Origin: a virus
Reading direction: 5' to 3' (one strand)
Length of the DNA: 55,872 bases
IMG/VR virus record: IMGVR_UViG_3300010158_000084
Location: 1-55,872 of that record
In this document: positions 30,724-37,788 of the stretch, piece after piece
Layout of the letters: the number at the start of each line of letters is the position of its first letter
Position numbering within the stretch: the stretch's first letter is position 1
Notes under the pieces: model-generated
Database searches by the model: none
Told to the model about the DNA's origin: nothing
What the model saw: only the letters and a program-made list of their open reading frames with translations
Program-made: the position numbers and the translations under genes

Positions 30724-30772
30724 TCTCGAATGTATTATTTTTTGAAGTTTTTTTAATTTTTTTTCATTTTTG

Positions 30773-30784: not shown

Positions 30785-32887
30785 ATGCCTAGAATACCAA
30801 AAAAAGAAATTTACATGAATAATCCAGCCCTACCAACAGTAGAGGCTCAGTTCGAATGGACACCAGAAATGGTTGCAGATTTGAAAAAATGTAAAGAAAA
30901 TATTTTACATTTTGCCGAAAATCATTTTTATATTGTCAATGCAGATGACGGAAGAATTAAAATACGATTACATTCTTTTCAAAAAAAAGCACTTAGAATG
31001 ATTAGAGATAATAGATTTAGTTTATTTTTGTTTAGTAGACAGGTAGGTAAAAGTACAATTGCTACTATATTTTTATTATGGGTAGCAATGTTTCAAGATG
31101 ATCAAAGAATATTGCTTGTAGCAAATAAAGAAAATACCGCAAAAGAAATTTTTAGGCGAGTTAGATTTGCATATGAAAATCTTCCGAATTGGTTAAAAGC
31201 ACCAATTCAATATTATGGGCTAGAAGCTATGGAATTAGCAAATGGATCTCGTATATCTATAACTACTACAACAGGAACTGCTGGTAGAGGATCTATGGCT
31301 AATATATTATTTGTCGATGAAGCCGACTGGATAGAACCTAATATGCTCGATGAATTTTGGGCATCGGTATATCCAATTATTTCATCATCGACTAAATCTA
31401 AAATTATTATGGCATCTACTCCAAGAGATACTTCTGGATTATTTTATAAATTATATGATGGATCGGTAAAAGGTACAAACGAATGGGTTCATATGAAGGT
31501 GCTTTGGAATGAAGTTCCCGGACGAGACGAAAAATGGAAAAAACAAACTGTAGGTTCTTTATCAGATATAGGAATGTGGAAGAGGGAATTTGAATGTGTC
31601 GATGGGAAAACCCTCATTACCATACTAAATAGTAATAATGAAGAGCAGCAAATCACAATTGAAGAATTGTACAAATCATTCGAATTAAATAAAAACAATA
31701 TAAAAATATTAACTCCTAATGGATTTGAGCCATTTTCTGGTATTCAAAAATTAACAAAAGATTGTTTAGAATTAATATTAACTACTACATCACTAAAATG
31801 TAGTAAAAATCATAGAGTTTTAACTAAATCTGGTGAATTTAAAATTGCCGAAGAATTAAAAATAAATGATGAAATACAAATAAAAAATGGATTTGATAAT
31901 ATTATCGAAATTAAATGTATTGGATCTTTACAAGTTTATGATTTATTAAATGTAGAATCTAATCAATATTACACAAATGATATCGTATCTCATAATTGCG
32001 AATTTGATGAAGTGGGAGAATCTGCAATAGATGGTGATCTTTTTGATAATATGAAAAGATATACAATGGAACCCATGTTTGTATATGATGATGGGAAATA
32101 TTTATTATGGGAAAGACCAAACGATCAAAAAATTTATGTGGCAGGAGTTGATATAGCAGAAGGAGTAGGAAAAGATGCCTCGGTTATACAGATTTTAGAC
32201 ATCACAGAACCCAAAACAATAAAACAAGTAGCAGTTTATCATAATAATAAAATTACACCATCAGAATTTACTCCAAAATTAAGAGAAATTCTACAACATT
32301 GGGGAGATCCATTAGCAATGATAGAACGAAATAATTGCGGAGGACAAGTTGTAGATAATTTAAAAAAGGATTTTAATTATGATAATATTGTAAATTGGGG
32401 TATTAATAAAGTTGCAAACAGAAAATCTTTGCAATATGGAATAGTAGCTCATACTAATACTAAATACGATGCGGTAATGAATCAAAGATATTGGATTAAT
32501 ACTATGAAATCTATACAGATCAACGATATTAATACAATATTAGAATTAAAAGATTTTGTTAGGCATCCAAATAAAACATGGGGGGCTAAACACGGGGCAC
32601 ATGATGATCGGGTTATGTCTTTAGCATGGGCATTAATGATATTACACGAAGATATAGCCCCAGTATATTTTGATATTATAGAAAAAAACGAAAGTAGTAA
32701 ACCAGTATTAATAAAATCTATGGATTATGGTATAAAATATTTTAACAATCCTTCTTCTATATATAATAACGAAAAAAATGGAATAGGTGGTGATGCATTA
32801 CCTATTATAATAGGAGGTTCTAATGAATCATTGAATCCGGAATATGATGATTTGTTTTCGCAAGGATGGAAACCGTTTTTCACTTAA
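30785..32887 (+). CDS. 17: Large terminase subunit (T4 gp17-like) interrupted by an in-frame mini-intein
   Basis: A 700-residue precursor; 566 residues after removal of the intein, close to T4 gp17 (610). The DNA-packaging ATPase has Walker A SRQVGKST (residues 84-91) and Walker B ILFVDEADW near 174. The RNase H-like nuclease has VAGVDIAEGVGKDA near 453 and HGAHDDRVMSLAWALM near 615. Between them residues 271-404 are an intein, beginning with Cys and ending His-Asn before a Cys. The extein halves rejoin as WKREFE-CEFDEVGESAIDGD, matching the T4 segment that leads into the nuclease. ATG 30785 is chosen over TTG 30770 by promoter spacing; ATG 30815 is an alternative. A complete reading frame supports splicing. 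Confidence 0.95.
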   Translation: MPRIPKKEIYMNNPALPTVEAQFEWTPEMVADLKKCKENILHFAENHFYIVNADDGRIKIRLHSFQKKALRMIRDNRFSLFLFSRQVGKSTIATIFLLWVAMFQDDQRILLVANKENTAKEIFRRVRFAYENLPNWLKAPIQYYGLEAMELANGSRISITTTTGTAGRGSMANILFVDEADWIEPNMLDEFWASVYPIISSSTKSKIIMASTPRDTSGLFYKLYDGSVKGTNEWVHMKVLWNEVPGRDEKWKKQTVGSLSDIGMWKREFECVDGKTLITILNSNNEEQQITIEELYKSFELNKNNIKILTPNGFEPFSGIQKLTKDCLELILTTTSLKCSKNHRVLTKSGEFKIAEELKINDEIQIKNGFDNIIEIKCIGSLQVYDLLNVESNQYYTNDIVSHNCEFDEVGESAIDGDLFDNMKRYTMEPMFVYDDGKYLLWERPNDQKIYVAGVDIAEGVGKDASVIQILDITEPKTIKQVAVYHNNKITPSEFTPKLREILQHWGDPLAMIERNNCGGQVVDNLKKDFNYDNIVNWGINKVANRKSLQYGIVAHTNTKYDAVMNQRYWINTMKSIQINDINTILELKDFVRHPNKTWGAKHGAHDDRVMSLAWALMILHEDIAPVYFDIIEKNESSKPVLIKSMDYGIKYFNNPSSIYNNEKNGIGGDALPIIIGGSNESLNPEYDDLFSQGWKPFFT
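31595..31996 (+). other. Mini-intein (134 residues) in terminase, no homing endonuclease
   Basis: Block A is CVDGKTLITI with the nucleophile Cys1. Block B is SLKCSKNHRVLTKSG with its conserved His. Block F is LQVYDLLNVESNQYYTNDIV and block G is SHN, followed by Cys as the +1 extein residue. These are the splicing motifs of class 1 inteins. There is no LAGLIDADG or HNH segment in only 134 residues, so it can splice but cannot home by itself. This is near the smallest length known for natural inteins (for example 134 for a Methanothermobacter RIR1 intein). Confidence 0.93.
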
Positions 32888-32890
32888 ATA
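32884..32890 (+). promoter_or_regulatory. Late-type promoter core for the 32896 gene
   Basis: TTAAATA overlapping the terminase stop codon, 5 bases before the ATG at 32896. Confidence 0.5.
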
Positions 32891-32895
32891 ATAAC

Positions 32896-33471
32896 ATGAA
32901 TCATTATGACCAATCTATACTGAATAAAAGCAGGAAAGACAAATTTGTATTAACTTTAGTATTACCGAAAGAATTAATACCATATAATAAAAGATTAGAT
33001 AGAAATAATACAAATTTAAATTTAGACACTTTACAATTCTCTATTTATGGAGTGGTAGTACCTAAAAATAATATACCAGCAGAAGAAGTAAGATATACTG
33101 GGAGTACAGTATTCGTTTCATCTCATAACAAACCTTCATATGATCCAGTTTCAGTAAATTTCACTATTGATAATGAATTTAATAATTATTGGGTTATACA
33201 TAAATGGTTAGATTTACTCAGAAATGAGAAAACTGGTATTTACGATGGAACCGAAATTTATAACAAAGATATGGGATTGGGTCGTTATTCTTCTGATATA
33301 ATTTTAACAGCAAAAGACGAATTTCACAATGATATTATACAATGGACTTATAAATCGGCATTTCCAATAACCTTGGGAGAAATAACATACAATTATAGAG
33401 ATGGATCGGAAGTTGAAACAAATTTTGAATTTGTTTTTCGGAGGATCGAAACAAATTTATTAAAAGTATAA
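32896..33471 (+). CDS. Tail-tube-fold protein, first of three
   Basis: A 191-residue protein starting MNHYDQSILNKSRKDKFVLTL. The C-terminal segment, WTYKSAFPITLGEITYNYRD then VETNFEFVFRRIE, follows the gp19-type tube pattern in which an (A/L)xPxxxGE strand leads to the final ExxxFExxFxxxxxE strand. The middle part, FSIYGVVVPKNNIPAEEVRY and DPVSVNFTIDN, also fits tube proteins. The ATG at 32866 in frame is rejected because of the promoter spacing and the overlap with the terminase. It could be a tail terminator, tube initiator or second tube subunit. Position, between terminase and sheath, suits a neck-proximal tail protein such as gp15. Confidence 0.65.
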   Translation: MNHYDQSILNKSRKDKFVLTLVLPKELIPYNKRLDRNNTNLNLDTLQFSIYGVVVPKNNIPAEEVRYTGSTVFVSSHNKPSYDPVSVNFTIDNEFNNYWVIHKWLDLLRNEKTGIYDGTEIYNKDMGLGRYSSDIILTAKDEFHNDIIQWTYKSAFPITLGEITYNYRDGSEVETNFEFVFRRIETNLLKV

Positions 33472-36503: not shown

Positions 36504-37097
36504 ATGCAAACTAATCAAATAATTAATACTTTTTATGATGATGCAGTAGTAAGTGATTTTGCTCGTGATTATTTATTTCGTGTCGAATCTGTGACACTTG
36601 ATGGACTTCGGGGAGCAGCTATGATATTAGATCCAAGAGATATGTTATATGCAAAGACTGCTAAATTGCCGGGACGTACTATAGTAAATCATCCAGTAAA
36701 ATACGCAGGTCAGACTTTTAATATACCGGGATCCGTAGAATATCCCGGAAGCGACAATTACGAAATGGAATTTTATTGTCCAGAAACTTCTGATATTAGA
36801 GAAAGATTGATGAATGAATCTCACAGAACTTTCGGAAATGTTACTGGTACTGCTGGTAGTGGTAGAGGTGGTGGATCTATTACTAATAGATTTTCTACCA
36901 TAACTCTATTACAACTTGATAAACGTCTGGATGTTGTCACTAAATATGAATTGGTTGGATGTTCTATTAGAAATGTAGGAGAAATCTCTTATAGTATAGC
37001 AGAAGGTACTGGAGCAGTGATGTCGTTTAGTGTTGGTATTGCATATCATTTCTTCTCTCGTACTAATTTTAATGGAATTGCAGCTAATAATAGTTAA
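36504..37097 (+). CDS. 19: Tail tube protein (T4 gp19-like)
   Basis: A 197-residue protein, similar to T4 gp19 (163) plus a small insertion. It begins MQTNQIINTFYDDAVVSDFARDYLFRV, typical of gp19 (T4: RAFESGDFARPNLFQVEI). AKTAKLPGRTIVNHPVKYAG matches the CKATALPAG turn. A Gly-rich loop (GTAGSGRGGGS) replaces the T4 insertion region. The C-terminus ELVGCSIRNVGEISYSIAEG then MSFSVGIAYHFF matches the conserved LWPTNVGELxxxW strand pair. Position directly after the sheath gene is as in T4. This is the major tube candidate. Confidence 0.9.
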   Translation: MQTNQIINTFYDDAVVSDFARDYLFRVESVTLDGLRGAAMILDPRDMLYAKTAKLPGRTIVNHPVKYAGQTFNIPGSVEYPGSDNYEMEFYCPETSDIRERLMNESHRTFGNVTGTAGSGRGGGSITNRFSTITLLQLDKRLDVVTKYELVGCSIRNVGEISYSIAEGTGAVMSFSVGIAYHFFSRTNFNGIAANNS

Positions 37098-37104
37098 ACA
37101 CTAG

Positions 37105-37788
37105 ATGCCAGAAGTTACAAGAACGCCGAGTTTAGTAAACCATTTTTTGGATTTACTAGGAACAGATTGGAATTATAATTTTCCTTTAAAAACTCAGTGG
37201 ATTGTATCTATTGAACCAGAAGATGGTTCTAATTTATATTCTACAATTAAAGATTATACTGATATAGATGTACATGGGTTTTATATAGATCCAACAATAC
37301 AGGCTATGCTTTTAAGCGAAAAGAGTCAACCCAACATAGACGGGTTGGCTCTTTATTTTGCACAATCAGTAAAAATGCCAAAAGAGTCATTAACAATAAG
37401 TAGTGCAGGATCTGATGGTATGGGAGGTTATTTGAAAGGAACCATAGCAGGAGATCGATTAGATATGATAGGGAGACATCTCAGTATCGATTTTCTGGAT
37501 ACTAATTTAGATTTTGTACAAACTTTAATTAGACCGTGGATAATAACAGCATCATATAAAGGTTTAATTAATACTAGATCAGAGTCTATAAAAGCTACTA
37601 TTACGGTCAACGAATATACAAGACAAAGTTCAAACTCTGATAAACCGATGAGAATAAGTCACATATTTACTGGGTGTGTACCAATAGATATATCAGAAAA
37701 AGTATTAAAATATGATACAGAAGAAGTAAGTTCAAGCAGTGTGGGATGGACATATAATCAATATACATATAAAGTATATTCTAATTAA
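37105..37788 (+). CDS. Tail-tube-fold protein, third of three (gp54/gp48-like candidate)
   Basis: A 227-residue protein starting MPEVTRTPSLVNHFLDLLG. It has tube-fold signs: FAQSVKMPKESLTISSAG (the ALPxx turn equivalent), LSIDFLDTNLDFVQTLIRPW, and the end HIFTGCVPIDISEKVLKYDT with VGWTYNQYTYKVY. A long N-terminal extension (to about residue 65) distinguishes it from the simple tube. In T4 gp54 and gp48 are tube-like proteins that cap the baseplate, so this may be the tube initiator. It directly follows gp19 by 7 bases with no promoter seen. Confidence 0.65.
   Translation: MPEVTRTPSLVNHFLDLLGTDWNYNFPLKTQWIVSIEPEDGSNLYSTIKDYTDIDVHGFYIDPTIQAMLLSEKSQPNIDGLALYFAQSVKMPKESLTISSAGSDGMGGYLKGTIAGDRLDMIGRHLSIDFLDTNLDFVQTLIRPWIITASYKGLINTRSESIKATITVNEYTRQSSNSDKPMRISHIFTGCVPIDISEKVLKYDTEEVSSSSVGWTYNQYTYKVYSN

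What the first reader, a model, noticed from the sequence alone, without database searches (positions are those of the whole stretch)
31595..31996. Minimal 134-residue intein in the packaging terminase
Seen: terminase codons 271-404 carry block A with Cys1, block B with its His, blocks F and G ending HN, and a Cys at +1. Extein halves rejoin across the boundary just before the nuclease domain. There is no endonuclease domain. Known: inteins of about this length are the smallest natural ones. Inference: splicing controls when terminase becomes active, or the element is a relic that lost homing. An intein that blocks the ATPase-nuclease hinge would keep packaging off until spliced. I cannot tell whether this insertion site has been described.
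Basis: partly seen in the sequence, partly recalled or inferred. Interest (0 to 1): 0.82.

Follow-up and report, generated by a model that had tools for sequence, protein, structure and literature searches.

The report
Contiguous mini-intein in phage terminase
The DNA-packaging motor gene of an uncultured T4-like phage carries a small self-splicing protein insert at an already described spot; it is the one-piece cousin of a well-known family of two-piece inteins, and it has apparently moved between phages although it carries no homing enzyme of its own.

Summary
Window 31595-31996 encodes a 134-residue class-1 mini-intein (Cys1, block-B His73, His133-Asn134, Cys+1) in a T4-type large terminase (TerL, ATG 30785). 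Close relatives have an empty site at exactly this codon boundary (REFE|CEFDE). The AlphaFold model (pLDDT 94.5) matches solved inteins. The site lies at the end of the ATPase domain. It is not a new site: the consensus atypical split intein "Cat" (from AceL-TerL and GOS-TerL) was solved with the same EFE / CE flanks, and its 30+104-residue halves sum to 134.

At the same site, relatives are empty, split with an intervening putative homing-endonuclease ORF, split with that ORF mostly deleted, or contiguous. The family also occupies Walker A and Walker B regions of TerL; some TerLs carry three inteins. A timing switch is not supported, because close relatives lack the intein. "Relic that lost homing" is too simple: TerL and intein trees conflict (AU p about 1e-79) and synonymous divergence is lower in the intein than in the exteins, so it moved horizontally. 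Homing in trans by a related endonuclease is plausible but not shown. Verdict: a real new member of a known kind with an interesting evolutionary context.

The parts
30785..31594 (+). N-extein of TerL (270 aa): ATPase domain with Walker A (SRQVGK|S) and Walker B (FVDEADWIE|P), both without insert in this window
   Evidence: Pfam PF03237 6e-12; aligns to T4 gp17 3ezk/3cpe and to the ATPase-domain crystal 2o0h
31595..31996 (+). 134-aa contiguous class-1 mini-intein
   Evidence: PDB 6dsl CatC 1e-16; AlphaFold pLDDT 94.5, Foldseek best hit VidaL E=3e-10; empty alleles at the same codon boundary
31595..31684 (+). IntN-equivalent (30 aa, CVDGKTLITILNSNNEEQQITIEELYKSFE); split relatives have a stop codon at this point
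   Evidence: L007/L009 IntN = 30 aa then stop; L035 31 aa then stop; Cat-TerL IntN 30 aa (PMC11766414)
31685..31996 (+). IntC-equivalent (104 aa, LNKNNIKIL...IVSHN); split relatives start a separate gene (MK-LNK...) here
   Evidence: L007/L009 IntC = 106 aa including the start MK; Cat-TerL IntC 104 aa
31595..31597 (+). Cys1, first splicing nucleophile
   Evidence: translation; Cys1 in all full-length homologues of A3
31811..31813 (+). His73, block-B histidine (CSKNH)
   Evidence: invariant in A3, 26 homologues
31991..31996 (+). His133-Asn134, C-terminal splice junction
   Evidence: Asn134 invariant and His133 at least 90% in A3
31997..31999 (+). Cys+1 of the C-extein, second nucleophile
   Evidence: translation; C271 at least 90% conserved in intein-less TerLs as well
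31997..32884 (+). C-extein (296 aa): linker and RNase H-like nuclease domain
   Evidence: Pfam PF17289 3e-9; nuclease-domain crystal 3c6a aligns from TerL position 299 on

Best explanation
The insert is a class-1, cis-splicing mini-intein of the phage TerL intein family that includes the atypically split AceL-TerL, GOS-TerL and Cat inteins; here the 30-aa and 104-aa parts are fused in one frame. Inferred chemistry: after translation the HINT domain folds, Cys1 makes an N-S acyl shift, Cys+1 takes over the N-extein, Asn134 cyclises with help of His133, and a 566-aa TerL is released. The intein is a mobile passenger. It sits in a functionally critical sequence, so only precise loss is tolerated. 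Close relatives at this site exist as split intein genes flanking a putative homing-endonuclease gene. The window's endonuclease-free form was acquired by this TerL lineage from a phage with a different TerL lineage, by ordinary recombination or by repair of a break made in trans by the endonuclease of a related phage. Shown here: anatomy, fold, empty site, family, tree conflict and low synonymous divergence. Inferred: splicing activity, the identity of the intervening ORFs as homing endonucleases of this site, and the route of transfer.
For: Splicing residues and fold. Family and site: PDB 6dsl_A begins EFE + IntN and 6dsl_B ends IVSHA|CE (Ala in place of the terminal Asn), the same flanks as REFE|CEFDE; IntN 30 / IntC 104 in PMC11766414. 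Exact empty alleles: L011-L014, L017-L019, L021, L024, L025 and others. Split forms at the same residue: L007, L035, and L009 with most of the intervening ORF deleted. The intervening ORFs of L007 and L035 at this site are 59% identical to each other, and different ORF families sit at the other sites. At least 70 of 73 further loci found with the intein alignment have a TerL match beside the intein, mostly at three regions: after residue 89, 171-184 and 270. Horizontal movement: window TerL groups with intein-less L012/L014 (100/99) while its intein groups with L003 (100/95); forcing window, L003 and L004 exteins together is rejected, p about 7e-80; synonymous codon differences intein versus extein 17/110 vs 101/283 (window-L004, p 8e-5), 7/129 vs 83/343 (L003-L004, p 7e-7), 26/121 vs 217/414 (L062-L063, p 1e-9), robust to amino-acid matching and to restriction to A/T-ending codons. 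Purifying selection on the intein: dN/dS about 0.1-0.26.
Against: No experiment: splicing is inferred. Pfam and NCBIfam intein models hit below their cut-offs. Intein GC3 (0.13) is lower than extein GC3 (0.18-0.19), which could lower synonymous change; the deep pair L039-L059 shows no difference and the A/T-only control holds, but the confound is not fully removed. No co-conversion tract from an L003-like donor was visible around the site. Direction of split to contiguous change is unresolved (P(split) at the ancestor of window and L007 about 0.2). The site-270 intervening ORFs have no meaningful Pfam or PHROG match, so they are called endonucleases only by position and by analogy with the other sites.
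Confidence: 0.9

Rival explanations
1. Regulatory switch: the intein blocks the ATPase-nuclease hinge and packaging starts only after conditional splicing.
For: The site is at the end of the ATPase domain and splicing is needed to rejoin the domains; mBio 2016 (PMC5050341) argues that TerL inteins in active centres could be regulators.
Against: Most close relatives have no intein (23 empty versus 6 occupied loci at this site in the TerL-query scan), including 87%-identical L012. The same phage group keeps inteins at three different sites in split or contiguous form, which fits passengers better than a tuned switch. The mycobacteriophage TerL inteins that were tested spliced quickly (PMC5050341).
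Confidence: 0.07
2. Inherited relic: an old intein that lost its endonuclease and is passed on vertically until deleted.
For: No endonuclease in the intein or found in the 56-kb window; L009 shows deletion of most of the intervening ORF in a near-identical relative of L007.
Against: Tree conflict and reduced synonymous divergence show movement after the exteins diverged.
Confidence: 0.12
3. Ordinary terminase domain or an alignment artefact.
For: Weak Pfam score taken alone.
Against: Clean empty alleles, splicing residues, HINT fold at pLDDT 94.5 with intein structures as top hits.
Confidence: 0.01

Closest known systems
AceL-TerL / GOS-TerL / Cat (consensus atypical split TerL inteins; PDB 6dsl; PMC11766414)
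   Same: Same insertion site (EFE|C...N|CE), same host protein type, same 30+104 residue architecture, 40% identity to CatC over the structural alignment
   Different: The window intein is one contiguous chain that should splice in cis; those are naturally split and splice in trans; GOS-TerL uses Ser1
Inteins of Vibrio phages 1.244.A and K444 and of Aeromonas phage PX29 TerL (MG592609, OZ196589, NC_023688)
   Same: Same TerL position (ME|C / QEH|C), same family by profile
   Different: Split genes; PX29 is annotated with N-intein, GIY-YIG endonuclease and C-intein; about 26-32% identity
Contiguous TerL inteins of Ackermannviridae (Klebsiella phage Magnus, annotated intein; Salmonella phage Det7)
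   Same: Contiguous, no endonuclease ORF in Magnus, same distant family (28-29% identity)
   Different: In Magnus the site is Walker A GK|T and the intein is 159 aa
Mycobacteriophage TerL inteins a-g (PMC5050341)
   Same: Intein in TerL ATPase domain at functional motifs, including Walker A, Walker B and the end of the ATPase domain (Pham3880-g)
   Different: Other terminase types; two tested there have endonuclease activity; not compared by sequence here
VidaL intein (PDB 6vgv)
   Same: Best structural match (E=3e-10, TM 0.89)
   Different: 22% identity

Membership tests
Class-1 intein (HINT splicing domain) | Nucleophile at residue 1 (Cys/Ser) | tested here: met
   Cys1 at 31595-31597
Class-1 intein (HINT splicing domain) | Block B His, penultimate His, C-terminal Asn, Cys/Ser/Thr at +1 | tested here: met
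   H73, H133, N134, C+1; H73 and N134 invariant and H133 nearly so among 26 homologues
Class-1 intein (HINT splicing domain) | HINT fold | tested here: met
   pLDDT 94.5; top 36 Foldseek hits in the PDB list are inteins
Class-1 intein (HINT splicing domain) | Precise insertion relative to intein-less homologues | tested here: met
   L012, L013, L019 and others
Class-1 intein (HINT splicing domain) | Protein splicing activity | not testable with these tools
   needs expression
AceL-TerL/Cat family of TerL inteins | Sequence homology to the family | tested here: met
   6dsl CatC E=1e-16; CatN 0.006
AceL-TerL/Cat family of TerL inteins | Insertion at EFE|C of a T4-type TerL | tested here: met
   flanks in 6dsl chains; TerL vs gp17
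AceL-TerL/Cat family of TerL inteins | Naturally split after about 25-37 residues | tested here: not met
   Contiguous open frame over the junction in the window; split at residue 30 in L007 and L009 and 31 in L035. So it is homologous to this family but is not a split intein
Full-length mobile intein | Homing-endonuclease domain or gene within the intein | tested here: not met
   134 aa only; endonuclease-like proteins of relatives absent from window
T4-type TerL (gp17) | ATPase plus RNase H-like nuclease domains homologous to gp17 | tested here: met
   A2 profile vs 3ezk E=5e-81

The most novel reading that the evidence does not exclude
Endonuclease-free, contiguous TerL mini-inteins keep spreading among aquatic phages by homing in trans: the endonuclease encoded between the halves of split sibling inteins at the same site cuts empty alleles, and any intein-bearing allele, including the one-piece one, serves as repair template. 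Split and contiguous states thus interconvert within one population at three sites of one motor gene.
Probability: 0.35. Interest if true: 0.65.

Novelty: new member of a known kind. Interest (0 to 1): 0.42.

Why it matters
The locus supplies natural one-piece counterparts of an intein family that is widely used as a split protein-labelling tool, with 30+104 halves that may be useful for engineering. Together with its relatives it gives empty, split with an intervening ORF, split with that ORF deleted, and contiguous states at a single site in closely related phages. That makes the question of how split inteins arise and whether they re-fuse directly testable. It also argues that lack of an endonuclease does not mean that an intein has stopped moving.

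Tried and rejected
Ordinary-domain reading: rejected by empty alleles. Cellular homologues: the intein alignment found none in 84,980 bacterial and archaeal species genomes (pattern-limited). Endonuclease elsewhere in the window: none by tblastn with five relatives' proteins; most of the larger window ORFs were scanned with PHROGs or Pfam without a homing-endonuclease hit. Direction of split/contiguous change: a two-state model needs both directions and does not resolve the ancestor. Co-conversion tract around the insertion: not detected. AlphaFold of the whole precursor: pTM 0.41, too poor to judge steric blocking. The 2009 fractured-genes paper is not held, and the original AceL-TerL paper was reached only through PMC11766414, PMC7891396 and the PDB sequences. 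YN00 dN/dS mostly failed numerically; NG86 used.

Full report
CHECK OF THE OBSERVATION. The ORF at 30770/30785-32887 (+) is a T4-type large terminase: 700 aa from the ATG, with Terminase_6N and Terminase_6C domains and a family profile that matches T4 gp17 (3ezk, E=5e-81). Residues 271-404 (31595-31996) are a 134-aa insert with Cys1, block-B CSKNH73, His133-Asn134 and Cys+1. Pfam Intein_splicing and TIGR01445 give only weak hits below cut-off, but the closest solved proteins are inteins (CatC E=1e-16, VidaL 3e-6, then gp41-1, NrdJ-1, DnaX). An AlphaFold model from 26 homologues has mean pLDDT 94.5 and its best PDB matches are all inteins (VidaL E=3e-10, TM 0.89). Relatives without the insert read ...KREFE|CEFDEVGESA... 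across exactly that boundary.

WHERE IT SITS. TerL residue 270 aligns with the T4 gp17 stretch RQEH|T. The crystal construct of the gp17 ATPase domain (2o0h) ends within a few residues of it, and the nuclease-domain crystal (3c6a) aligns only from TerL position 299. Whether the unspliced intein sterically blocks the motor could not be judged: the precursor model has pTM 0.41.

THE SITE IS KNOWN. PDB 6dsl is the consensus of the atypically split TerL inteins. Its N chain starts EFE followed by IntN and its C chain ends IVSHA|CE (Ala in place of the terminal Asn), the same flanks as here. A 2025 review gives Cat-TerL as IntN 30 + IntC 104 residues, AceL-TerL 25+104 and GOS-TerL 37+115 (PMC11766414); 30+104 is exactly 134. 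Cultured Vibrio phages 1.244.A and K444 and Aeromonas phage PX29 have split inteins at the same TerL position, PX29 with annotated N-intein, GIY-YIG endonuclease and C-intein. [quoted passage not shown]

THE FAMILY. An intein-alignment scan of viral contigs returned 80 loci (156 matched). At least 70 of the 73 new ones have a TerL match beside the intein, mostly at three regions: after residue 89 (Walker A GK|S/T), 171-184 (Walker B) and 270. No relative was found in 84,980 cellular species genomes. Two contigs (L039/L060 and L059) have inteins at all three sites of one TerL; L035 has split inteins at two sites, so its TerL is encoded in three pieces. At site 270, L007 and L035 are split after residue 30/31 with an ORF of about 325 aa in between (59% identical to each other). 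Those at Walker B form another family with a TnsA-like nuclease domain (PHROG 15427 'endonuclease', shared with the E. coli phage HY03 TerL endonuclease), and that at Walker A is a third type, with a weak PHROG 'homing endonuclease' match. The site-270 ORFs themselves have no meaningful database match, so calling them homing endonucleases rests on position and analogy. L009 is near-identical to L007 but has lost most of the ORF while staying split (IntN stop and separate IntC start kept). The window, L003-L005, L059 and L039/L060 are contiguous with no ORF at this site. On a tree of 80 IntC domains the split/contiguous state needs at least 15 changes (20 contiguous, 59 split, 1 unknown). A two-state model requires both directions and does not say which came first in the window's clade.

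MOVEMENT. The window's exteins are closest to L012/L014 (87%, no intein; clade support 100/99), inside a group that is otherwise empty at this site, whereas its intein is sister to that of L003 (100/95), whose exteins lie in another clade and are only 75% identical. Holding window, L003 and L004 exteins together is rejected (AU p about 7e-80). Synonymous differences are fewer in the intein than in the exteins for window-L003 (p 0.004), window-L004 (8e-5), L003-L004 (7e-7) and L062-L063 (1e-9) but not for L039-L059; amino-acid matching and restriction to A/T-ending codons do not remove the effect. So endonuclease-free inteins of this kind have moved or recombined between phages more recently than the exteins diverged. 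No donor-like tract was seen beside the insertion. The route may be ordinary recombination, or homing in trans, a pathway documented in phage T4 for an intron with a defunct endonuclease (PMC2988022); the haloarchaeal intein literature notes that mini-inteins must rely on co-homing if they home at all (PMC10643990).

FUNCTION. Intein dN/dS of about 0.1-0.26 and intact catalytic residues indicate selection for splicing. Dispensability (empty alleles at 87% identity; 23 empty versus 6 occupied loci in the TerL-query scan) argues against an essential packaging switch. My reading is constitutive cis-splicing that yields a 566-aa TerL, with the intein a tolerated mobile passenger lodged where only precise loss is viable. 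Splicing itself is inferred, not shown.

VERDICT. Real, correctly described, and a new member of a known kind: the contiguous counterpart of atypically split TerL inteins at a known site. The added value is the comparative series at one site and the evidence that an endonuclease-free mini-intein has moved horizontally.

Noticed in passing
L039 5271-7055 (same contig as L060) and L059 2286-5390: One TerL gene with inteins at all three sites (Walker A, Walker B, 270); in L039 all three are contiguous in one 982-aa ORF, in L059 the Walker A one is split. L059 comes from a 236-kb contig.
   Followed up: partly
L035 5001-8669: TerL broken into three gene pieces by two split inteins, each with its own intervening endonuclease-like ORF.
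   Followed up: partly
L009 1407-1895 versus L007 420-1729: Near-identical phages differing by deletion of most of the ORF between the intein halves: a snapshot of endonuclease loss from a split intein.
   Followed up: yes
L057 (Campylobacter phage NCTC12673) 4001-5362: The TerL C-half preceded by an IntC has no CDS annotated in NC_015464, and no TerL N-half lies in the fetched 8.3 kb, so the halves may be far apart in the Fletchervirus genome.
   Followed up: no
L048 (Nitratidesulfovibrio phage SRB7757) 3001-3408: Contiguous 136-aa TerL intein at Walker B (FIDE|C) in an unannotated cultured phage record, 37% identical to the window intein.
   Followed up: partly
window 31600-31999: GC dips to 22-24% over the intein against 28-35% in most of the flanking TerL.
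   Followed up: partly
window 32866-33471, 36504-37097, 37105-37788: Three tail-tube-like genes (PHROG 45; the third match weak), one before and two after the tail sheath gene.
   Followed up: no
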